Source: Paenibacillaceae bacterium (GTDB taxonomy: Bacteria > Bacillota > Bacilli > Paenibacillales > Paenibacillaceae). Taken from it: a stretch of 64,000 nt of DNA. Numbering within the stretch: position 1 is the stretch's first letter; each line of letters starts with the position of its first letter. A program made the position numbers and the translations under genes. Where the stretch lies: positions 151,232-215,231 of the forward strand of contig REGQ01000002.1 in assembly GCA_004134985.1 (NCBI GenBank). The letters are read 5' to 3'. Positions 1,113-11,288 of the stretch are shown here, in pieces. The notes under the pieces were generated by a model that saw only the letters and a list, made by a program, of their open reading frames with translations, made no database searches and had not been told where the DNA came from.

Positions 1113-2168
1113 CTATTCGATGCTTTCGGTTATTTCCCTGACCATCTCCGCAACAGAGATCAGTCCGCCGCCAGAGAGATACCAGTAATTCGGGTCCAGA
1201 TAGACGATATTGCCTTCCTTATAGGCTTTCGTTTTATTGACCAGATCGTTTTCGATGACTTGCTTCGCCGACGACTCGCCGCCAACCACTGCTCCGCGGT
1301 CAACGACAAACAAATATTCCGGGTCCTTCTCGACAATATACTCGAAGGAAATGCTCATGCCGTGAGTGGACACTTCGATATTTTCATCCGCAGGGGTGAA
1401 GCCAAATACATCATGAATAATTCCGAAGCGCGAACCCGCGCCATATGCGCTCACATTGCCATCGTTAGCCAAAATAATCAAGGCATTGCTGCCCTTTGAG
1501 GTCACTTTGCCATGCAGTGCTTCAATTGCCTGTTTGACATCAGCCAGTTCAGCTGCAACCTCGGTTTCTTTGTTAAAAATCTGACCGAGGATTTCAGCAT
1601 TGCTCGTGTAGGACGCCATATAGTTGGCACTGTCTACACCAAGGTAAATGGTCGGTCCAAGCTTGGTCAATTCATCATAACTGTCCGACTGCCTACCCGA
1701 AATAATGATCAGATCCGGCGCAATTTCACTAATTTTCTCAAAATCAGGCTCTTTCAGGCTGCCTACATTTTGATATTTGCTATCTTCGTATTGCTTTAAG
1801 TAAGGCGGAATATTCGCCTGCGGCACACCGGTCACTTCCACCCCGAGCTTATTCAGAGAATCAAGCACGCCGAAATCAAAAACGACAACTTTTTGCGGAT
1901 TGACCGATACTTGCGTCTCTCCAAGCTGATGGGTTACCGTAATCGTCGAGGAAGTTCCCTCTGCGTTTTGTTCCTCCGTGCTCTCCTCGCTTTCCTGCTT
2001 GTTCTCCTCTTCCTGTCCCTTTGCATCTTCCCCAGCTTGCGCTCCTGACCCGCCTGCTGCTGATTGATTATTACTTGTCCCCCCGCCAGTCTCCGTATTT
2101 TTTGCCCCGCATGCCGCTATGAGCAGCACGAGCAGCAGCGACATCAAGATCAACCCTGGTTTTTTCAT
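1113..2168 (-). CDS. yclQ: Siderophore-binding lipoprotein (YclQ/FatB type)
   Basis: Predicted iron-siderophore binding lipoprotein of 351 residues that hands ligand to the adjacent permeases. The N-terminus carries a lipoprotein signal with lipobox LIAAC, then a Ser/Glu/Gln-rich linker of about 60 residues and a class III periplasmic-binding fold (VVVFDFGVLDSLNKLG, then NVGSLKEPDFEKI). I start at the ATG at 2168 because AGGTGG lies 8 bases upstream; a GTG four codons earlier overlaps that site. It is the last gene of a yclN-O-P-Q order known in Bacillus subtilis for petrobactin uptake. The exact siderophore is inferred from the family only. Confidence 0.92.
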   Translation of the reverse strand: MKKPGLILMSLLLVLLIAACGAKNTETGGGTSNNQSAAGGSGAQAGEDAKGQEEENKQESEESTEEQNAEGTSSTITVTHQLGETQVSVNPQKVVVFDFGVLDSLNKLGVEVTGVPQANIPPYLKQYEDSKYQNVGSLKEPDFEKISEIAPDLIIISGRQSDSYDELTKLGPTIYLGVDSANYMASYTSNAEILGQIFNKETEVAAELADVKQAIEALHGKVTSKGSNALIILANDGNVSAYGAGSRFGIIHDVFGFTPADENIEVSTHGMSISFEYIVEKDPEYLFVVDRGAVVGGESSAKQVIENDLVNKTKAYKEGNIVYLDPNYWYLSGGGLISVAEMVREITESIE

Positions 2169-2224
2169 TTCTGCAACCACCTTTTCTTTAATTATAGTAG
2201 ACTCCTAATTCCCGTCCTTCAGAA

Positions 2225-2983
2225 TCAGGAGAAATACACGCATATTTTTTTGCCATTCACGGTTTCAATCGGGATGTCCATCTCGTAAACTTCCTGCAAT
2301 ACAGCCGAATCGATAATTTGATCCGTGCTCCCGGTGCGGATAACCTTGCCATCCTTCAAGGCGACAATATAATCCGAATAACTGGAGGCAAAGTTGATAT
2401 CATGCAATACCAGCACAATCGTCTTGCCCAGCTCGTTCACCAGCTTTTGCAGTATTTTCATAATTTGCACGGAATGTTTCATATCCAGATTGTTAAGCGG
2501 CTCATCGAGAAAAATATAGTCGGTATCCTGCGCCAGCACCATGGCAATATAAGCGCGCTGCCGCTGGCCGCCGCTAAGCTGATCCAAATAGCTGTCCTGC
2601 AATTGCTGCAGATCCATATAGTTCATCGCATTCTCGACAACTTTCAAATCTTCCTTGTTCAGCCTCCCCTGGGAATAGGGGAATCTGCCGAAGCTGACCA
2701 AATCTCGCACCGTCAGACGGATGTTGATATGATTGGATTGTTTGAGGATGGAAAGTTTTCGAGCCAGCTCATCGCTTTTGCACCTGCCGATTTCAACACC
2801 GTCGATAAAAATTTCCCCAGTGTCCTTCGCCAGCAACCGGCTCATCATCGACAGCAGCGTGCTTTTGCCTGCGCCGTTAGCACCGATGAATGAGGTAATG
2901 CTGCCCTTTTCAATTGTGAGCGATACCTGATCGACAACGGTTTTGCCCCCATACCGCTTCGACACGCCTTTGACTTCAATCAT
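2225..2983 (-). CDS. yclP: Siderophore ABC transporter ATPase (YclP type)
   Basis: Cytoplasmic ATPase of 252 residues that powers the importer. Walker A is GANGAGKST, the signature is LSGGQRQRA, Walker B ends in IFLDEP followed by the D-loop LNNLD, and the switch histidine is in VLHD. GGGAG sits 8 bases before the ATG at 2983; a GTG one codon earlier is possible. It lies between the permease gene and the binding protein gene with short gaps, consistent with one transcript. The family is the FecCD-partner ATPases; assignment to YclP rests on gene order. Confidence 0.93.
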   Translation of the reverse strand: MIEVKGVSKRYGGKTVVDQVSLTIEKGSITSFIGANGAGKSTLLSMMSRLLAKDTGEIFIDGVEIGRCKSDELARKLSILKQSNHINIRLTVRDLVSFGRFPYSQGRLNKEDLKVVENAMNYMDLQQLQDSYLDQLSGGQRQRAYIAMVLAQDTDYIFLDEPLNNLDMKHSVQIMKILQKLVNELGKTIVLVLHDINFASSYSDYIVALKDGKVIRTGSTDQIIDSAVLQEVYEMDIPIETVNGKKICVYFS

Positions 2984-2999
2984 CACCTGCGCTCCCTTG

Positions 3000-3947
3000 C
3001 TACCATGACTTGCTCTCTCTTAACAGAAGATAGAGAAAATAAACGCCGCCCGTTAAATTAATAATGACGCTGACTGTCGTTGAAAAAGTGAAGACGCGTT
3101 CGACAATCAGTTGCCCGCCTACGAGCGCAATGATACTGATCAGCATTGAACCGGGAATCAGAAAGCGGTGGCGGTAAGTTCGCATAAATTGATGTGCCAC
3201 ATTGGCCACCAGCAGTCCGAGAAATGTGATCGGTCCAACAAGCGCTGTCGAAAGCGAAATGAGCACCGCAATAACGACCAGCAGCCGCTTGACCACCCGG
3301 TCATAATCGACGCCAAGATTGACCGCATGATCCCGTCCCAGCGAGATAACATCCAAATATTTTGTGAAGCGCAAACTATATCCTACCGTTACACCCATCA
3401 GAATCACTGCCGCCGTCAACAAATCTGTATTGACATTGTTGAAGCTGGCGAACATCCGGTCCTGAACAATGGTAAATTCATTCGGGTCAATCAACACTTG
3501 CATAAACGTGGAGACACTCCCGAAGAAGGTGCCGAAAATAATGCCGACAAGCAGCAGAAAATAAATGTTGCGCCCTTGCTTGAACAGAAATTGATACAGC
3601 AGCATCGAAAACAGCACCATCAGACCGACACTGATTGCGAAATTGACATTTTTATTAACCATCGTAAAGCTCATTGATCCGAAAATAAAAATGATGAAGG
3701 TCTGAATGAGCATGTACAGCGAATCCAGCCCGATAATGCTTGGCGTTAATATTCGGTTGTTCGTAATCGTCTGAAAAATCATGGTCGAAAAAGCTATCGC
3801 CGCCCCTGTCAGTGCTATCGCCGCGATTTTGACGCCTCTTCTCGGGAGCACATACTCCCAATTGCTTCCGACTTTAATAAACATGAACACGGCAATCAGT
3901 CCGAGCGCCACAGCAGCCAAACCGCCCAATCTTGCTTTATATGGCAT
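3000..3947 (-). CDS. yclO: Siderophore ABC transporter permease (YclO type)
   Basis: FecCD-family membrane permease of 315 residues with about nine hydrophobic segments, starting with LGGLAAVALGLIAVFMFI. The motif GLLVANVAHQFMRTYRHR near the C-terminal third is the ATPase-contact region of this family. AGGAG lies eight bases before the ATG. Its start overlaps the end of the other permease gene by 11 bp, so the two are probably translationally coupled. It should form a heterodimer with the YclN-type partner. Confidence 0.92.
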   Translation of the reverse strand: MPYKARLGGLAAVALGLIAVFMFIKVGSNWEYVLPRRGVKIAAIALTGAAIAFSTMIFQTITNNRILTPSIIGLDSLYMLIQTFIIFIFGSMSFTMVNKNVNFAISVGLMVLFSMLLYQFLFKQGRNIYFLLLVGIIFGTFFGSVSTFMQVLIDPNEFTIVQDRMFASFNNVNTDLLTAAVILMGVTVGYSLRFTKYLDVISLGRDHAVNLGVDYDRVVKRLLVVIAVLISLSTALVGPITFLGLLVANVAHQFMRTYRHRFLIPGSMLISIIALVGGQLIVERVFTFSTTVSVIINLTGGVYFLYLLLRESKSW

Positions 3948-4890
3948 GTTTCTTTCTCCTCATGAGCAAGTAAATAAACATTCCGCTGCCGATAACCCCT
4001 ACCGTCAGTCCAATCGGAATTTCGTACGGGTAGATGATCACCCGTCCCAAAATATCACAGAACAGTACAAAGATTGCGCCCAGCAGCGCTGTATGGGCCA
4101 GATTTTTCTTGAGGTTGTCGCCCTGATAAAGCGTCACAATGTTAGGCACGATCAAACCGAGAAACGGAATAACACCAACCGTCAGAATGACGACCGAAGT
4201 GACAAGCGCGACAATGATCAGACCGATATTGACCACCTGCCTGTAATTCAGGCCAAGATTGACGGCAAACTCCTCCCCCATACCAGCCAGTGTAAATCGG
4301 TTGGCATACAAATAGGCGATAATCATCACCGGAATGCTGATGTACAGCATTTCATAACGCCCCTTGATGATCATAGAGAAGTTTCCCTGCAGCCAGGAAG
4401 AGATGTTTTGGATCAGGTCAAATTTAAAAGCAAAAAAAGTAGTGAGCGAACCGATAATGTTGCCGAACATCAAACCGACCAGAGGAATGAATATCGTATC
4501 CCTATATTTGATTTTGTCGAGAATTCGCATAAAAATGAAGGTGCCTGCCAATGCAAAGACAAATGCGACACCCATTTTTTGCAGCGGCGTGGCTGAGGAA
4601 AAAACAATCATAGCCACCAGCACGCCCAGTCTGGCTGAGTCCATCGTTCCTGCTGTCGTAGGGGAAACGAACTTATTGCGCGTCAGCTGCTGCATAATCA
4701 GACCGATAATACTCATGCTTGTCCCCGCAATCATCAGACTGACCAGACGCGGCACTCTGCTCGCCCACATAATATGGCTCTGATCATCGCTTAGCCTGAA
4801 CAATTGCCAGGGTGATATGTTTTTGACCCCGACAAAAAGGGAAATAAAAGCAAGGACAGCGAGTATGGCGAACAAATATCGTTTTCTCAT
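3937..4890 (-). CDS. yclN: Siderophore ABC transporter permease (YclN type)
   Basis: FecCD-family permease of 317 residues, first gene of the importer operon. Recognisable stretches are ASRVPRL, NKFVSPTTAGTMDSARLG and VGVIPFLGLIVPNIV, which resemble B. subtilis YclN closely from memory. The ATG at 4890 is chosen because GAGGG precedes it by 11 bases, while the ATG six codons upstream has no ribosome site. A perfect Fur box lies about 80 bp upstream, so iron-starvation induction is expected, with the neighbouring AraC-type regulator as a likely activator. Confidence 0.92.
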   Translation of the reverse strand: MRKRYLFAILAVLAFISLFVGVKNISPWQLFRLSDDQSHIMWASRVPRLVSLMIAGTSMSIIGLIMQQLTRNKFVSPTTAGTMDSARLGVLVAMIVFSSATPLQKMGVAFVFALAGTFIFMRILDKIKYRDTIFIPLVGLMFGNIIGSLTTFFAFKFDLIQNISSWLQGNFSMIIKGRYEMLYISIPVMIIAYLYANRFTLAGMGEEFAVNLGLNYRQVVNIGLIIVALVTSVVILTVGVIPFLGLIVPNIVTLYQGDNLKKNLAHTALLGAIFVLFCDILGRVIIYPYEIPIGLTVGVIGSGMFIYLLMRRKKHAI

Positions 4891-4971
4891 TCCAATCCAA
4901 TCCCTCATTCGTTAAATAGAATCTCATAATGATGCAGCTGCAGGTTTAATAAGATTGCTAGATCGCTATCT

Positions 4972-4986
4972 TGATAATGATTATCA
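4972..4986. promoter_or_regulatory. Fur box before the importer operon
   Basis: TGATAATGATTATCA matches the 7-1-7 Fur consensus of Bacillota at every defined position. It lies between the importer operon and its regulator gene, upstream of yclN, so iron-loaded Fur should repress the transporter. Confidence 0.88.
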
Positions 4987-5038
4987 ATATTAAATAACAT
5001 ATCCCATCCTGTTGGAAACAGGAATGGAATATTCTTTT

Positions 5039-6613
5039 TTAGACATGGACTTTTCTGGGCAGTTGATCTGTTTGCAAAAAATAATGAACGGTTCGGTCGA
5101 TTAAGGCATCATGCGCGGCGGCATTGTAAAGCAGCGGCATGCTATGGCGTACAAACAAGCATTGCCCTTGCCAACGGCTGGTCCGGTGCTGTCGCCAATG
5201 CCCCTCAAGCTGTCGGCACTTGCGCTCCGGCAGTCGGCTCTCTACCAGAAAGATAATGTTGTCGCATTCCAGCGCAACGATTTCCTCCAGAGACACCGTA
5301 TCCAGAAAGGAACGTTCTCGCGCTGAATCGGGAATGGCCAGTTGCAGCTCATCATAGAATAGATCCTTCATCCGCTGCCGCTGGTTTCCAAAAACCTGAA
5401 GGCTCTCATCTTCCATTACCCGCACGACCAAAAACGGCTCATCCTGCAATTGCTGACGGATATGGTGTCTGGCATTCTCAGCTTTCTTCTCAAAATAGGC
5501 AAGCCAGTGCTGCGCCACGGAAGTCAACCCCAGTGCATCGCTGATCGCGAGCAGCCGCTCCTTCCATGAACATTGCTTCCAGTGCAGCATCACAACCGGC
5601 GCGATACCGCGCAGCGCGTCATGAACATGATCCGCCACAGGCGAAGCGAGAATGATGTCCGGCTGACACCGCTCGATCTGCTGCAAGTAATACTCCGGCT
5701 GCTGCGACCAGCCGCGTTCCAGCGACAGTACTGGCTTAATGCCCAGGACAGACAGATCACCCTGAAACACCGGAGACAGATTGGCGACGCGTACATTGGC
5801 GCAAGCGGCGAATTCACTCGGCGATAAGCCCATATGCTTCTTGAACAACCGGCTGAAATAGAACTCATCCGGATAGCCGACCGCGTGCGCTACTTCCATG
5901 ATGGAACCCGGTCGATCCGCCAGCAGCCGCAGCGAACGGTTCAAACGGGACATCGTCAGAAACTTGTGGGGACTCAAGCCAGCATGACGTTTGAATTCCT
6001 GGTAAAAGCGGCTTTGTCCTACTCCTGATCTTCGAGCCAGTTCCTCGATGTCGATCGATTCATGATAATGATCCAGCAAGTAGCGCCGGGCCTGCTCAAT
6101 ATCAGCAAATGATTCGCTCAGCAGTGAATGATCCGGCATATGCAGCTTCTGCATTAGCATCGCAGCCATATGATACAAATAAGATTGCAGCTTATAGTAA
6201 TGAACAGAATCCCCGCCGGGGTGATCAGCATTATGATTGAGAAACTCCTGCACCCAGCTTTGAAGCTGGGGCACCTGGAACAATATCACTTCAGCGGATG
6301 AAACCGCCAGTGGCCGTTCGCTGTGAAAACGGATAAATACCGCTTCAACGGGTCCCGCGCCAATATTTTCGATCACTGCGCTGCAATTCGCCGGAATATA
6401 GACCACTTCGCCCTGCTGCGCTTCAGCTAGTCCCGACTCTCTGCCTTGTGTGAGCCGGACGCCCATCGTGCCTCTGCGCACAAAAGCGAAAATTGCCACT
6501 TTGTCCGTTATGGCCATCTGTTCTGCCATCTTTGCAAGATGGACATATTCTGTCGCCACATAATGGAGGGGGTAGTGTTGACCGCCTTCAGTTGGCGAAT
6601 GAGAGACATCCAT
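5039..6613 (-). CDS. AraC regulator with siderophore-binding domain (Btr-like)
   Basis: Transcription regulator of 524 residues in three parts: an N-terminal cupin-like region (about 1-140), an AraC helix-turn-helix pair (about 165-270, including RSGVGQSRFYQEFKRHAG and VGYPDEFYFSRLFKKHMG) and a C-terminal periplasmic-binding-type domain (about 275-520). B. subtilis Btr has this architecture and activates a siderophore uptake operon when its ligand domain binds the siderophore. The adjacent yclNOPQ genes on the same strand are the obvious target. The ATG at 6613 follows AAGGA at a usable distance; a GTG three codons earlier overlaps that site. A Fur box overlaps its promoter. Confidence 0.9.
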   Translation of the reverse strand: MDVSHSPTEGGQHYPLHYVATEYVHLAKMAEQMAITDKVAIFAFVRRGTMGVRLTQGRESGLAEAQQGEVVYIPANCSAVIENIGAGPVEAVFIRFHSERPLAVSSAEVILFQVPQLQSWVQEFLNHNADHPGGDSVHYYKLQSYLYHMAAMLMQKLHMPDHSLLSESFADIEQARRYLLDHYHESIDIEELARRSGVGQSRFYQEFKRHAGLSPHKFLTMSRLNRSLRLLADRPGSIMEVAHAVGYPDEFYFSRLFKKHMGLSPSEFAACANVRVANLSPVFQGDLSVLGIKPVLSLERGWSQQPEYYLQQIERCQPDIILASPVADHVHDALRGIAPVVMLHWKQCSWKERLLAISDALGLTSVAQHWLAYFEKKAENARHHIRQQLQDEPFLVVRVMEDESLQVFGNQRQRMKDLFYDELQLAIPDSARERSFLDTVSLEEIVALECDNIIFLVESRLPERKCRQLEGHWRQHRTSRWQGQCLFVRHSMPLLYNAAAHDALIDRTVHYFLQTDQLPRKVHV

Positions 6614-6645
6614 GCTCTTCACTTCCTTTTGAACAACTTCCCCCT

Positions 6646-6674
6646 ATCATAATGATAATCGTTCTCAACGTCAA
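6646..6674 (-). promoter_or_regulatory. Promoter of the Btr-like gene with overlapping Fur box
   Basis: On the minus strand, TTGACG (6669-6674) and TATGAT (6646-6651) are separated by 17 bp, a good sigma-A promoter. The spacer contains TGATAATCGTTCTCA on the plus strand (6653-6667), which matches the 7-1-7 Fur consensus with two mismatches. Repressor binding there would block polymerase, so the activator gene is itself likely to be iron-regulated. Confidence 0.8.
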
Positions 6675-6779
6675 CACTGTTTCTGAGACAAGCACACAGA
6701 AATGGTGGGATATACGCCGTGCCTTTTTAACGATGTCTACATATTCTACAGCAATGAAAATTTGCAAGGAGGGAGCCGA

Positions 6780-7916
6780 ATGAGCACCCAGCTTTTCATT
6801 CCCAAATATCGTGTTGAGGAATGTTTGGACGAAATCAGAAAAAGCCTGGAATGTGGTTGGACTGGACTTGGCCACAGAACGGTAGAGTTTGAAAATATTT
6901 GGAAAGTGTACACCGGATTATCACACGCCCATTTTGTCAACTCTGCCACAGCCGGGCTCTATATGGCCGTTGAAATTTTGAAAGCTGCAAACCAATGGGC
7001 TGATGGCGACGAAATCATCTCTACCCCGATTACCTTTGTATCGACAAACCATGCGATTTTGCATAATAATCTGAAAGTGACGTTTGCCGATGTCGATGAC
7101 CGGCTTTCACTCGATCCTGTCGATGTAGAACGGAAAATAAACGAGCGGACACGGGCGGTCATGTATGTCGGAATTGGCGGCGACACCGGACAGTATGAAC
7201 AAATGGTCGCATTATGCCGTAAGTACAATTTGAAGTTAATTCTTGATGCGGCACATATGGCTGGCACACGCCTGCATGGTGAAATACCCGGCAAAGAAGC
7301 GGATGTCGTGGTCTATTCGTATCAGGCCGTCAAAAACTTGCCTACCGCCGACTCCGGCATGCTCTGCTTCAAAGATGAGGAGCATGATGCGCTCTGCCGC
7401 AAACTCAGCTGGCTTGGCATCAGCAAGGACACCTACAGCCGCACAGAAGGCGGCGGCACTTACAAGTGGCGGTATGATGTCGATCACCTTGGGTACAAAT
7501 ATCATGGCAATTCCATTATGGCAGCAATCGCGATTACCCAACTGAAATATTTGGATGAGGACAACGCTTACCGGCGCCAGCTCGCAAGCTGGTATGATGA
7601 GCAATTGTCTGCCGCTAATCTGCCAATAACCCCCATTACGATTTCGGACGGTTGTGAATCGTCACGGCATCTATACCGCATCCTGACACCTGAGCGTGAA
7701 CAATTGATCAGCCATTTGCACGCCAACGATATTTACCCAGGCGTTCATTATCGCGACAATACAGAGTATTCCATCTACGCCTATGCCAACGGCACTTGCC
7801 CGCAAGCGCATGCCTTGAGCCAACAGGTGCTTTCGCTCCCTCTGCATCTGCATATGACTGAAGCGGATGTGAGTCATATTTGCGCAAGTATTGCCGCTTA
7901 TTGGAGTGGTGATTGA
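6780..7916 (+). CDS. DegT/DnrJ/EryC1 family sugar aminotransferase
   Basis: PLP-dependent aminotransferase of 378 residues of the family that aminates nucleotide-linked keto-sugars. The N-terminus has GWTGLGHRTVEFENIW, the cofactor region DAAHMAGTRL, and the likely Schiff-base lysine is in YSYQAVKNLPTADSG. AAGGAGGG sits 6 bases before the ATG; longer frames upstream lack a site. It overlaps the acetyltransferase gene by one base, and a glycosyltransferase follows, so the three probably build and attach an acylated amino sugar. Acceptor and sugar are unknown. Confidence 0.9.
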   Translation: MSTQLFIPKYRVEECLDEIRKSLECGWTGLGHRTVEFENIWKVYTGLSHAHFVNSATAGLYMAVEILKAANQWADGDEIISTPITFVSTNHAILHNNLKVTFADVDDRLSLDPVDVERKINERTRAVMYVGIGGDTGQYEQMVALCRKYNLKLILDAAHMAGTRLHGEIPGKEADVVVYSYQAVKNLPTADSGMLCFKDEEHDALCRKLSWLGISKDTYSRTEGGGTYKWRYDVDHLGYKYHGNSIMAAIAITQLKYLDEDNAYRRQLASWYDEQLSAANLPITPITISDGCESSRHLYRILTPEREQLISHLHANDIYPGVHYRDNTEYSIYAYANGTCPQAHALSQQVLSLPLHLHMTEADVSHICASIAAYWSGD

Positions 7917-8440
7917 TGAATGATCAATATACGTTTGAATCGGAAAGGCTTCTGATACGCCCATTGCATCAAAATGATCTGGAAATTGTTCGCGTTTGGC
8001 GCAACAATGACGATATCCGCCGATGGTTCTTGCAGCAGCGGCTCATTAGCCCAGAAGAGCAGCGACACTGGTTTGAGCAATACAAAGGCAAGCATAACGA
8101 CCGCATGTTTATGGCCGTCGAAAGATCCAGCCGGCTGCGCGTCGGAACTGCTGCTTTGTATAACATTCAGCCTGAATTGGCGGAATTCGGCAGGCTGATT
8201 ATCAATCCTGCCAGAGGCGGTCAAGGTTTGGGGGCAGAGCTGACCGAAGCGCTCTGCCAGTTTGGCTTCCACTCCCTCAAACTGTCCAAGATCGTTATTG
8301 AAGTCATTTCCGACAATTACGCAGCTTTGAAAATTTACGAGAAATACGGCTTCAGGAAGACCGGGGCCGCGATTCACGAAAACCGCAATGTCATTTTAAT
8401 GGAACGGGATCGATCCTTTAACGGAAAGGAGAGTGACTGA
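7916..8440 (+). CDS. GNAT acetyltransferase, RimJ/RimL-like
   Basis: GNAT-fold N-acetyltransferase of 174 residues. The acetyl-CoA loop is NPARGGQGLGAELTEAL and the C-terminal strand IYEKYGFRKTGA is typical. The ATG shares its first base with the stop of the aminotransferase gene (TGATG), with GGAG a few bases upstream, so the two are coupled. PseH-type enzymes that acetylate the 4-amino group of UDP-sugars have this size and neighbourhood, so sugar-amine acetylation is the leading idea. Ribosomal-protein acetylation is the alternative for the wider family. Confidence 0.85.
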   Translation: MNDQYTFESERLLIRPLHQNDLEIVRVWRNNDDIRRWFLQQRLISPEEQRHWFEQYKGKHNDRMFMAVERSSRLRVGTAALYNIQPELAEFGRLIINPARGGQGLGAELTEALCQFGFHSLKLSKIVIEVISDNYAALKIYEKYGFRKTGAAIHENRNVILMERDRSFNGKESD

Positions 8441-11265
8441 TGCTGAAGGCCAAGCAATTTCTTAACGATGGCAAAATGATCTATCCTCCTGGTTCTTACC
8501 CTGCCGATCCGATGATTAGTATAATTATGCCTACCTATTGCCGCGGGTCCAACGGATACCTGCGGCGAGCCATTGAGAGTGTTCTGAAGCAGAGCTTCAA
8601 AAATTATGAACTCATTATTGTAGACGACGGATCAACTGACGGCACAGCCGGAGTCATTGCGGAAATGCAGGCGCTAGACTCCCGTATTCTGCATATTCGC
8701 CATGAGACGAATTGCGGCTTGCCTGCCTTACGGATCAATGAAGGATTGGACATCGCACGCGGCAAATACATTGCATACCAGTTTGATGACTGCCAGTGGC
8801 TGCCCGATGCGCTGCAGCATCTCCATACAGCAATCATCGCGGCCGGGAAGCCATGTCTCGTTTACGGAAAATGTCTGTTTCAAACAGGTGACAGTGAACA
8901 GGTTCTCGGAAAAAGATTCGACTATGCCGAATTAACTCAAGGCAACCAGCTTGCCGGCAACAGCGTGCTGCATCCGCGGTCGTTTGTTGAGGAATTGGGC
9001 GGCTATGATTACCATATCGTTATGAAGCGCCTGAACGACTGGGATTTATGGCAGAGGTGGAACAAGCGTTATCCTTTTATTTTCGTGGATCAATTGATTG
9101 CTCGGATCGACAGTGGAACAGAACACTCCCTGGCCTCGACATCCCCTTATGATTTAACTGGTGTGCGGGTCATGCTGGACTTGACAAACCGGATGAACAG
9201 ATTGCTGCCCCCTAACTGGGCAGAAGGCTATCTGGATGATCTTTCTCCAGTGAAGCGCGCCTATTCCCCCGAGTTAGTCGACGAGCTGTGGCGGCTTCAT
9301 CTTGCACCTTGGTATGAACAGCATGCTCCACAGCTCCTGGATCAGCCGGAGTATGGCCAGCACACCGAAAAAACGGCCAATTCATTGCTCGTAACGAAAA
9401 TGGGGTTTGACCCATCTGTCGATATTACCATTTTGAACTTTCTCTCGGTGCCTGACAGCAATGTAGAAGCTTGCTTTATTCCATCTAACCAATTGACCCC
9501 GGATGATCTGAAACTGGCAGACGTCAATATCTTCCACCGCAGTTTTTATAGATCAACCAATGAGCTTCAAGAAAAATCACTGGAGTTCAACCGCCCCGTC
9601 ATGTATATGATGGATGACGACTTGCTTGGCCTGCATGAGCTAGGTCCCGAATTCAGCTGTTTTGCCCCTGGAGAGCCATTCCAGAAAGAACTGGTCCAGC
9701 ATATCGCCACGGCCGACATGGTCGCCGTCTACTCGCCGGTTGTCGCCGATGCGGTGCGCTCGATTAACCCGCGGGTCAAAGATCTGCGAACGAATATTTT
9801 GGCAAAGTACATTGAACGCCATCCTGAGCCGCGCCGTCCCAAAGGTCCGTTTCGTATCTGCTTCGCCGGTACTGATGCACGCAAGCAGGAATTCCAGAAA
9901 CTTTTCCCTGCCCTAGTGCAATTTTCAGCCGAGATGGGCGATCAGCTCGAAATTCACTTTTGGGGGTTTGCTCCGGAAGGATTGCCTGCCCTTCGCTGCC
10001 CTGTCTTCTATGAGCCGCAATCTCTCAGCTACACGGAATATATTCTTCGTCTTCGAGGGGCGCAATTTGATGTCATGCTCTCCCCGCTTGATGACAGCAG
10101 CAGAGCAAAAAAGGGAAAATGCCCGATCAAATATTTGGAAATCACAGCGGCGCGCAGCATTGGCATTTATTCTTATGCACACCCGTATGCGCTCATCGAG
10201 CATAACCTACACGGGATTAAAGCTTCGAACACGCCTGAAGCCTGGCTTGAAGCGCTGCGCTATGCCTGGAAGCTCGGACCGGAAGGACGGGAACAGATTT
10301 TCCAAGCTGCACGAAAAGATATTTTAGCGGAATACACGACTGAAGCGCAAAGCAGCTCATTCCAAACGATCGTTGAAACAACGATGCTCCACGCTATGCT
10401 TCGTGAGAAAAGAAAAGAGAACGGCGTTCCGGATTACGCGTTAATTATTAACGCCGGAGGGGACGACGCTGCGGCACGCAAATTACTGCGGAGTGCTGCG
10501 ACGCTCAAGGGATATGGTTTTCAACCGAAGGTAAGTCTGTTGGGCGAAGAAAAGCTGCACCACGCTCCCGACTACAAACATTTCGCTGCGTCGCATGGTC
10601 TGGAAATGGTTTCCCATACGGACAATGCATCTCTGGATTCATGGCTCGGCAGCCATAACTTTTCCTGGATTCATGCGGCGAATTTTGACCCGGACTTGTC
10701 GGCGCTAAGCCAAAGACGTTCTATTCCCGCTATGTTGGGAATGCCTTTCGCAGAAAACGCCCATTCGTCAGAAACTGCTGAATTTCTTTCACCGCAACAA
10801 TTACATTACATCGTTAAAAGCTACCGTCAATTAGTCAGTCAATGGTGGCATACGAGGACGATAGCTGTAGAGGAAGTGGAATTGAGCCCGCCGGCTCCCG
10901 AACAGCCGCCTGCAGAGCCTCCATCCGTTAATAACGACACTGCTGCCGCGCCTCTTATTGCCCGCAAGCACCATGAAGCCGGCAAACTGCCTAAAATAAA
11001 AAAAAGACGCAAGTTAAAGCTGGCCAGAAGAAGAAAAAAGCTGACATCAAAACAAAAACGAGCCAAATTAAAAAGAAGGAAATTGGGAAAAGCCGCTTTA
11101 CTACGCCGCTACAGAAAAGGGAGAAAACCGCTTAAGGGAGCACGGGGCAAAAGTAAGCTGAAGCGCGCTTACGCAACAAAACGGGGAACGAGAAAGATAA
11201 AAAAAGCCTCAGCCAAGTCCAAACGCTCTACGAAGGCATTGCGCCGCAAAAAACGAGCCGCCTGA
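8440..11265 (+). CDS. Two-domain glycosyltransferase with polycationic tail
   Basis: Protein of 941 residues. Residues about 25-240 form a GT-A family 2 domain (ISIIMPTYCRG, IIVDDGSTDG, later NDWDLWQRW). Residues about 325-640 resemble a GT-B/family 1 fold (FRICFAGTDARKQEFQKLFP, KCPIKYLEITAARSIGIYS). A variable region and a Pro-rich linker follow. The last 93 residues (848-940) are about half Lys/Arg (49 of 93) with no acidic residue. AAAGGAG precedes the ATG, which shares a base with the previous stop. The tail could bind an anionic polymer such as wall teichoic acid or DNA; this is inference. Confidence 0.88.
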   Translation: MLKAKQFLNDGKMIYPPGSYPADPMISIIMPTYCRGSNGYLRRAIESVLKQSFKNYELIIVDDGSTDGTAGVIAEMQALDSRILHIRHETNCGLPALRINEGLDIARGKYIAYQFDDCQWLPDALQHLHTAIIAAGKPCLVYGKCLFQTGDSEQVLGKRFDYAELTQGNQLAGNSVLHPRSFVEELGGYDYHIVMKRLNDWDLWQRWNKRYPFIFVDQLIARIDSGTEHSLASTSPYDLTGVRVMLDLTNRMNRLLPPNWAEGYLDDLSPVKRAYSPELVDELWRLHLAPWYEQHAPQLLDQPEYGQHTEKTANSLLVTKMGFDPSVDITILNFLSVPDSNVEACFIPSNQLTPDDLKLADVNIFHRSFYRSTNELQEKSLEFNRPVMYMMDDDLLGLHELGPEFSCFAPGEPFQKELVQHIATADMVAVYSPVVADAVRSINPRVKDLRTNILAKYIERHPEPRRPKGPFRICFAGTDARKQEFQKLFPALVQFSAEMGDQLEIHFWGFAPEGLPALRCPVFYEPQSLSYTEYILRLRGAQFDVMLSPLDDSSRAKKGKCPIKYLEITAARSIGIYSYAHPYALIEHNLHGIKASNTPEAWLEALRYAWKLGPEGREQIFQAARKDILAEYTTEAQSSSFQTIVETTMLHAMLREKRKENGVPDYALIINAGGDDAAARKLLRSAATLKGYGFQPKVSLLGEEKLHHAPDYKHFAASHGLEMVSHTDNASLDSWLGSHNFSWIHAANFDPDLSALSQRRSIPAMLGMPFAENAHSSETAEFLSPQQLHYIVKSYRQLVSQWWHTRTIAVEEVELSPPAPEQPPAEPPSVNNDTAAAPLIARKHHEAGKLPKIKKRRKLKLARRRKKLTSKQKRAKLKRRKLGKAALLRRYRKGRKPLKGARGKSKLKRAYATKRGTRKIKKASAKSKRSTKALRRKKRAA

Positions 11266-11288
11266 TATGACTCGTTTTTTTTTTGCGG
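11244..11288. terminator. Bidirectional terminator
   Basis: A stem pairs CCGCAAAAAACGAG with CTCGTTTTTT...GCGG around a 13-base loop that contains the glycosyltransferase stop codon. It has a T run on the plus strand and an A run before it, so it can end transcription from both convergent units. Confidence 0.85.

What the first reader, a model, noticed from the sequence alone, without database searches (positions are those of the whole stretch)
10981..11262. Glycosyltransferase with a polycationic C-terminal tail
About half of the last 93 residues are Lys/Arg, with no acidic residue. This is not part of usual glycosyltransferase folds, and it follows an aminotransferase and an acetyltransferase in a coupled cassette. 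The tail may bind an anionic acceptor such as teichoic acid or spore polymer.
Basis: partly seen in the sequence, partly recalled or inferred. Interest (0 to 1): 0.6.

Follow-up and report, generated by a model that had tools for sequence, protein, structure and literature searches.

The report
Polycation-tailed glycosyltransferase, a recurrent Paenibacillaceae design
A sugar-transferring enzyme of a Paenibacillus-type spore-former ends in a disordered, extremely positively charged tail that its own orthologues lack, but the same kind of charged extension turns up again and again on unrelated sugar-transferring enzymes across this bacterial family, probably as an electrostatic tether to a negatively charged surface.

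Summary
Residues 849-941 of the 941-aa glycosyltransferase (10984-11262) hold 49 K/R in 93 and no D/E, net charge +49, with no tandem repeats. AlphaFold leaves residues 807-941 disordered. In 1.25 Mb of the same genome no other open reading frame matches it for K/R-rich, acid-free sequence.

The enzyme is GT2 (SpsA-like) + GT-B + the N-half of a third, GT4-like domain. In longer orthologues the second half of that domain occupies the tail's place. None of eight orthologues read (31-37% identical), several with the same aminotransferase-acetyltransferase pair nearby, has the tail. So it is not a cassette property.

The design itself recurs. In Paenibacillaceae, 28 of 30 orthologues of an unrelated GT4 end in a K/R tail, and all 30 GT-D enzymes read carry a polycationic head. 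These lie in conserved glycan clusters that also encode GT2s with basic heads, a free polycationic protein and a WIAG-tail protein. In 17 of 17 clusters one gene has a conserved sigma-K-like element upstream.

Best reading: an electrostatic tether holding the enzyme at a polyanionic glycan-assembly surface, plausibly the forming spore. For this cassette the spore link is weak: it lacks the conserved promoter, and some orthologues lie beside ABC exporters.

The parts
6740..6748 (+). CATATTCTA: exact match to a sigma-K -10 (CATANNNTA), about 40 nt before the aminotransferase ATG; no matching -35
   Evidence: present in 3.7% of shuffled upstreams; the site has no significant score with the promoter matrix of the family clusters (31.7% of shuffles as good). 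Suggestive only.
6780..7916 (+). DegT/DnrJ/EryC1 aminotransferase, PseC-like (start set by orthologues; the ORF opens at 6702)
   Evidence: orthologues 60-62% identical in four family genomes
7913..8440 (+). GNAT N-acetyltransferase, PseH-like, overlapping the aminotransferase end
   Evidence: PseH model 82.4 bits, below the equivalog cut-off 93.1
8440..11265 (+). Glycosyltransferase, 941 aa, with the polycationic tail
8509..9144 (+). GT2 / GT-A catalytic domain (aa 24-235), SpsA-like
   Evidence: Pfam PF00535 1.7e-25; VIA Z 23.6, rmsd 2.0 over 198 residues to B. subtilis SpsA 1h7l
9370..10395 (+). GT-B domain (aa 311-652), GT4/CgeB-like fold
   Evidence: VIA Z about 21-23 to GT4 structures, rmsd about 3 over about 300 residues; paralogous single domains in own genome
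10417..10839 (+). N-terminal half of a third, GT4-like domain (aa 660-800); its C-half is missing and the tail takes its place
   Evidence: alignment with L081, L008, L009 and L079; model
10858..10983 (+). Acidic Pro/Ala-rich disordered linker (aa 807-848)
   Evidence: pLDDT below 50, pI 4.5
10984..11262 (+). Polycationic C-terminal tail (aa 849-941), 53% K/R, no D/E
11244..11288 (.). Hairpin CCGCAAAAAACGAG...CTCGTTTTTTTTTTGCGG across the stop codon; candidate bidirectional terminator
   Evidence: -15.6 kcal/mol, z -1.3; not flagged by the consensus scan

Best explanation
The protein is a multi-domain glycosyltransferase that adds sugars, probably including the 4-(acylamino)-4,6-dideoxyhexose made by the two preceding enzymes, to a surface glycan. 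Its tail is a disordered electrostatic tether that holds the enzyme at a polyanionic glycan-assembly surface. It is one instance of a recurrent Paenibacillaceae design in which unrelated glycosyltransferases (GT-D, GT2, GT4 and this GT2/GT-B enzyme) each carry an unconserved, acid-free K/R-rich extension. In the best-populated form of the design the surface is probably the forming spore, reached from the mother-cell cytoplasm; I extend that to this enzyme with less confidence. Shown: the tail, its predicted disorder, its absence in orthologues, the recurrence of the design, and the sigma-K-like element of the clusters. Inferred: tethering, the surface, the sugar and the timing.
For: Tail and disorder. 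Orthologues lack it. Same architecture (GT, linker, C-terminal K/R tail) on an unrelated GT4: 28 of 30 loci read, with a same-genus example in L119/L179. All 30 GT-D loci read have a polycationic head, including the own-genome copy. Sixteen further clusters hold 41 such proteins among 309 ORFs, whereas 865 control ORFs of the own genome include only 7 with any basic end, this GT among them (slightly different thresholds). Own-genome cluster C9 holds a free polycationic protein plus a basic GT-D and a basic GT2. Spore link: a CATATG(C/T)T(G/A) element with a TAGCA/TCACC box at sigma-K spacing upstream of one cluster gene (the -10 pattern in 17 of 17 clusters, shuffled mean 1.24; spacing 15 +/- 1 bp in PMC517825); a CotS-like kinase beside the G001 cluster; the GT-A domain matches SpsA best. 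Precedent: the polycationic coat protein CotG (PMC9765600).
Against: The window cassette is far from any such cluster and lacks the clusters' conserved promoter; it has only an exact -10 match (P = 0.037 by shuffling). Orthologous cassettes in G224 and G157 lie beside ABC-2 exporter genes, which points to an envelope polymer. The tail is seen in one species only, so purifying selection on it cannot be shown. No binding or localisation data exist.
Confidence: 0.5

Rival explanations
1. Envelope-polymer docking: the tail binds teichoic or teichuronic acid, another anionic secondary wall polymer, or the anionic inner membrane of vegetative cells, placing the enzyme at a lipid-linked polymer before ABC export. 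This is closest to the first reader's idea.
For: Orthologous cassettes in G224 and G157 carry dTDP-sugar genes and an ABC-2 permease/ATPase pair. Teichoic-acid transferases TarP and RmlT are among the fold matches of the GT2 domain.
Against: The G224 orthologue lacks the tail, so the polymer does not require it. No exporter lies next to the window cassette.
Confidence: 0.25
2. CotG-type coat building: the tail is a substrate of a CotH-like kinase and assembles into the coat as a structural spacer, the enzyme being partly a coat component.
For: CotH is present in the own genome. CotG is polycationic, CotH-phosphorylated and assembles in the coat (PMC9765600). The GT clusters encode free small polycationic proteins.
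Against: The tail has no tandem repeats, only 5 Ser and 4 Thr, and CotH is on another contig.
Confidence: 0.1
3. Neutral leftover: loss of the second half of the third GT domain exposed A-rich DNA whose translation happens to be basic, with no function.
For: Orthologues show a variably shortened third domain. The tail region has strong A skew and is known from one species.
Against: K/R exceeds what the tail's own dinucleotide content gives. There are no acidic residues in 93, and the same design recurs in dozens of other GTs.
Confidence: 0.1
4. Nucleic-acid binding: an H1-like tail binds DNA or RNA in the cytoplasm.
For: K/R/A composition like histone-H1-type tails (sequence).
Against: No reason for a glycosyltransferase to bind DNA. 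The recurrence is confined to glycan-cluster proteins among the ORFs surveyed, apart from ribosomal L20 and a few unidentified ORFs.
Confidence: 0.05

Closest known systems
SpsA and the sps operon (spore coat polysaccharide / legionaminic acid pathway, B. subtilis)
   Same: GT-A domain is the best fold match (Z 23.6); sps also pairs a sugar aminotransferase (SpsC) and an acetyltransferase (SpsD) with glycosyltransferases (PMC7439481; enzyme classes of SpsC/SpsD partly from my own knowledge)
   Different: SpsA is a single GT-A domain without a tail; the window cassette has no SpsE, SpsF, SpsG or SpsM partners next to it
CotG and CotG-like coat proteins
   Same: Long, highly positive segment; positive charge kept in most species while the sequence is not homologous (PMC9765600)
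   Different: CotG is a structural protein with tandem repeats; here the segment ends an enzyme and has no repeats
Paenibacillaceae GT4 with K/R tail and GT-D (PF22882/NF040628) with K/R head (described here)
   Same: Acid-free K/R-rich extension on a glycosyltransferase; in L119 it also follows a Pro/Ala/Glu-rich linker
   Different: Those genes lie in a conserved WIAG-tail/GT-D/GT4 cluster with a sigma-K-like element; the window gene does not
Tail-less orthologues of this GT (G224, G025, G364, G276, G280, Paraburkholderia, Bryobacteraceae)
   Same: Same GT2 + GT-B order; four of the five family genomes (all but G025 by the ORF table) have an aminotransferase-GNAT pair nearby
   Different: End in a full, shortened or absent third GT domain; no polycationic tail

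Membership tests
GT2 glycosyltransferase (GT-A, SpsA-like) | GT2 profile and GT-A fold | tested here: met
   PF00535 1.7e-25, 90.3 bits against cut-off 23.3; 1h7l Z 23.6
GT2 glycosyltransferase (GT-A, SpsA-like) | Metal-binding acidic motif (DXD type) | tested here: inconclusive
   FDDCQW at 115-120 where most orthologues read FDDDQW
Polycation-extended Paenibacillaceae GT design (defined here) | GT domain followed or preceded by a 30-aa window with at least 40% K/R and at most 1 D/E near an end | tested here: met
   17 of 30 K/R, 0 D/E at the C-end
Polycation-extended Paenibacillaceae GT design (defined here) | Located in the WIAG-tail/GT-D/GT4 cluster | tested here: not met
   Own-genome cluster is on contig C9, the window on C42
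Polycation-extended Paenibacillaceae GT design (defined here) | Sigma-K-like element of the cluster upstream | tested here: not met
   Matrix score not significant; -10 alone matches
CotG-like coat protein | Positively charged region made of tandem repeats | tested here: not met
   Charge yes; no tandem repeats
CotG-like coat protein | Gene next to cotH | tested here: not met
   CotH on contig C61
CotG-like coat protein | Present in the spore coat and phosphorylated by CotH | not testable with these tools
   Needs coat proteomics
Pseudaminic/legionaminic acid pathway (PseC, PseH) | Aminotransferase and acetyltransferase pass the PseC and PseH equivalog cut-offs | tested here: not met
   210.4 against 423.5 bits and 82.4 against 93.1 bits: related enzymes, sugar not fixed
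Anthrose-type operon (B. anthracis) | Aminotransferase, acyltransferase and GT making a 4-acylamino-4,6-dideoxyglucose | not tested
   Recalled resemblance only; no anthrose sequences were compared

The most novel reading that the evidence does not exclude
Spore-forming Paenibacillaceae use a sequence-independent polycationic 'address' grafted independently onto N- or C-termini of unrelated glycosyltransferases, together with a free polycationic protein, to gather glycan-building enzymes on the forming spore surface. The window enzyme shows the address being moved to a new enzyme outside the core cluster.
Probability: 0.35. Interest if true: 0.75.

Novelty: new variant of a known kind. Interest (0 to 1): 0.55.

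Why it matters
How mother-cell enzymes are kept at the spore surface while they build its glycans is poorly known outside B. subtilis and the B. cereus group (own knowledge). A charge-based, sequence-free targeting module repeated on many unrelated glycosyltransferases would be a simple and testable answer, and would explain why homology searches miss it: the extensions do not align. No paper on it turned up in the library held here, which is far from complete.

Tried and rejected
Frameshift or wrong-frame artefact: rejected; the frame is open throughout and the other frames have stops or are not K/R-rich in this way. Tandem-repeat expansion: none. Homology search with the tail: only itself in the own genome, and in the family only weak hits, many with internal stops, that do not look like such tails; sequence similarity is the wrong tool for these extensions, and this first made the tail look unique. 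Promoter test on GT4 upstreams: start calling failed for most loci and the genes sit inside operons, so uninformative. General sigma-K/sigma-E scan of cluster upstreams: weak (relaxed sigma-K 8 against 2.15 expected; sigma-E not enriched); the clear signal came only after aligning one orthologous gene, so it was found after looking and rests on one gene per cluster. Phage and plasmid collections: single-domain matches only in the rows listed, no record covering 80% of the query. The first structure listings were refined with VIA-align; the third half-domain and the tail are barely covered there.

Full report
Observation. The ORF 8440..11265 (+) encodes 941 residues and runs without interruption into a tail of 93 residues (849-941; 10984-11262) with 29 Lys, 20 Arg and no Asp or Glu. 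Net charge is +49, against -21 for the rest of the protein. First-order Markov sequences with the tail's own dinucleotide content average 31.3 K/R (sd 4.8), so codon-level choice, not base composition alone, makes the charge; Arg is encoded by both CGN and AGR codons. There are no tandem repeats. In 1.25 Mb of the same genome no other ORF equals it; the only others with 33% or more K/R in 60 residues and at most 3 acidic residues are three glycan-cluster proteins on contig C9, ribosomal protein L20 (my reading of the sequence) and one ORF of doubtful coding status. The C9 stretch was fetched because of its GT-D gene, so it is not an unbiased sample. In the unbiased part, 7 of 865 ORFs of 150 aa or more have any basic end; this GT is the strongest, and several of the rest look like spurious frames.

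Anatomy. Residues 24-235 are a GT2/GT-A domain: PF00535 at 1.7e-25, and the best structural match is the B. subtilis spore coat polysaccharide transferase SpsA, Z 23.6, rmsd 2.0 over 198 residues. Residues 311-652 are a GT-B domain, with Z about 21-23 to GT4 enzymes, rmsd about 3 over about 300 residues. Residues 660-800 align to the N-terminal half of a third, GT4-like domain whose second half is present in the longer orthologues. An acidic Pro/Ala-rich linker (807-848, pI 4.5) leads into the tail; residues 807-941 have pLDDT below 50. The upstream genes, a PseC-like DegT aminotransferase and a PseH-like GNAT, overlap end to start with each other and with the GT. They score below the PseC and PseH equivalog cut-offs, so the sugar is not fixed, but a 4-amino-4,6-dideoxyhexose that is then N-acylated is the natural product of such a pair (inference from the families).

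Orthologues. No orthologue is found in the six other genomes of the genus. Full-length relatives exist in a few family genomes (G224, G025, G364, G276, G280), a Paraburkholderia and a Bryobacteraceae MAG, at 31-37% identity over the alignment; G157 shares the GT2 domain. A further relative in another family of the order (G449) was not read. None of the eight aligned proteins has the tail. The aminotransferase (60-62%) and GNAT (about 40%) are linked to the GT in G276, G280, G224 and G157, and a more distant pair lies in G364.

The design recurs. In G364 a neighbouring GT of the orthologous cassette had a K/R-rich N-terminus. Following this, all 30 loci read of the GT-D-like family PF22882 in Paenibacillaceae have an N-terminal 40-residue stretch with 35-57% K/R and 0-2 acidic residues, including the own genome's copy. 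The same search lists shorter GT-D frames of 236-298 aa in many of these genomes, which leave little room for such a head (not read). A same-genus GT4 (L119) has a Pro/Ala/Glu-rich linker and then a K/R tail, the same order as in the window protein. Its relatives occur in 200 of 295 family genomes. Of the 30 read, 28 have the tail: the script's count of 28 included L198 read in a wrong frame, and its correct frame, read afterwards, also ends in a K/R tail; L180 and L181 lack one. Sixteen clusters read in full hold 41 such proteins in 309 ORFs. The extensions do not align with one another, and the tail search found none of them.

The clusters and the spore. The clusters contain, in changing order, a WIAG-tail repeat protein (NF012201), sugar-nucleotide enzymes, GT2 and GT-D with basic heads, small helical proteins, a free polycationic protein of about 90-160 aa, DUF3880/CgeB-like GTs and the tailed GT4. 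In G001 a CotS-like kinase lies next to the cluster (72.7 bits, below the 172.7 subfamily cut-off). Upstream of one small-protein gene, 17 of 17 clusters carry CATANNNT(A/G), 16 of them as CATATGNT(G/A), at varying distance in otherwise divergent DNA (shuffled means 1.24 and 0.14). In 13 of these used for a matrix, most show TAGCA or TCACC at the spacing of sigma-K promoters (spacing 15 +/- 1 bp from PMC517825; the letters of the sigma-K consensus are from my own knowledge). The own-genome cluster has it too. This is good but indirect evidence for late mother-cell expression of the clusters. It was found by looking at this gene after a weaker general scan, and the shuffles do not correct for common descent, although the surrounding DNA differs.

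The window cassette itself. It lies on contig C42, far from the C9 cluster, and lacks the conserved promoter. It has one exact CATANNNTA about 40 nt before the aminotransferase start (P = 0.037 in shuffles) but no convincing -35. Two orthologous cassettes lie beside dTDP-sugar genes and an ABC-2 permease/ATPase pair, as expected for an exported envelope polymer. So the spore reading for this enzyme rests on analogy of design, and the envelope-polymer reading is a serious rival.

Mechanism. The most economical account is an electrostatic tether: a disordered chain of net charge about +49 on an acidic, flexible linker keeps a soluble glycosyltransferase on a polyanionic surface, so that its domains act repeatedly on bound acceptors. 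Sequence freedom with charge conserved, placement at either terminus, and occurrence on unrelated GT families all fit a charge-only address. CotG is a precedent for a polycation in the spore coat, where CotH phosphorylation offsets the charge and is needed for assembly (PMC9765600); a CotH gene is present in this genome. The tail lacks CotG's repeats and is poor in Ser/Thr, so I do not file it as CotG-like. Not shown: binding, location, timing, the acceptor, the sugar, and enzymatic activity (the GT2 acidic motif reads DDC instead of DDD).

Novelty. Glycosyltransferases, PseC/PseH-like pairs and polycationic coat proteins are all known kinds. A polycationic extension recurring on several unrelated GT families across a bacterial family was not found in the library searched, which lacks most subscription papers. 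I class the finding as a new variant of a known kind.

Noticed in passing
G000:C9, L117:5944-19487: Own-genome copy of a conserved Paenibacillaceae glycan cluster: WIAG-tail protein, GT-D and GT2 with polycationic heads, a free polycationic protein (8461-8814), small helical proteins and DUF3880-like GTs.
   Followed up: yes
17 cluster loci (for example L209 upstream of 9425, L216 upstream of 12751): Conserved CATATG(C/T)T(G/A) element with TAGCA/TCACC about 15 nt before it, upstream of a small helical protein of no known family; sigma-K-like.
   Followed up: partly
L080:4167-7979 and many cluster GTs: Basic N-terminal heads are often followed by GY-x2-G-x3-GY type repeats (FNTGYNSGYNDGYNKGYD...), a second recurring module of unknown role.
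   Followed up: no
6651-6667: AATGATAATCGTTCTCA resembles a Fur box, in the intergenic region between a siderophore-uptake type gene set on the minus strand (1113-6622) and the cassette.
   Followed up: no
8785-8793 (aa 116-118 of the GT): The acidic motif reads DDC where most orthologues have DDD; catalytic consequence unknown.
   Followed up: partly
L121:7851-8609 and L141:17520-18125 (own genome): Two ORFs with K/R-rich C-terminal tails and no Pfam or NCBIfam match; they look like small coat-type proteins, unverified.
   Followed up: partly
L086 (G000:C39:23000-42900): Second own-genome glycan locus with PseB-like dehydratase, GNAT, DegT aminotransferase, two GT-B enzymes related to this GT's middle domain, and APH/CotS-like ORFs (weak match).
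   Followed up: partly
L082:12152-13534: In G276 and G280 the orthologous cassette directly follows a YVTN beta-propeller protein gene, a possible glycan acceptor.
   Followed up: no
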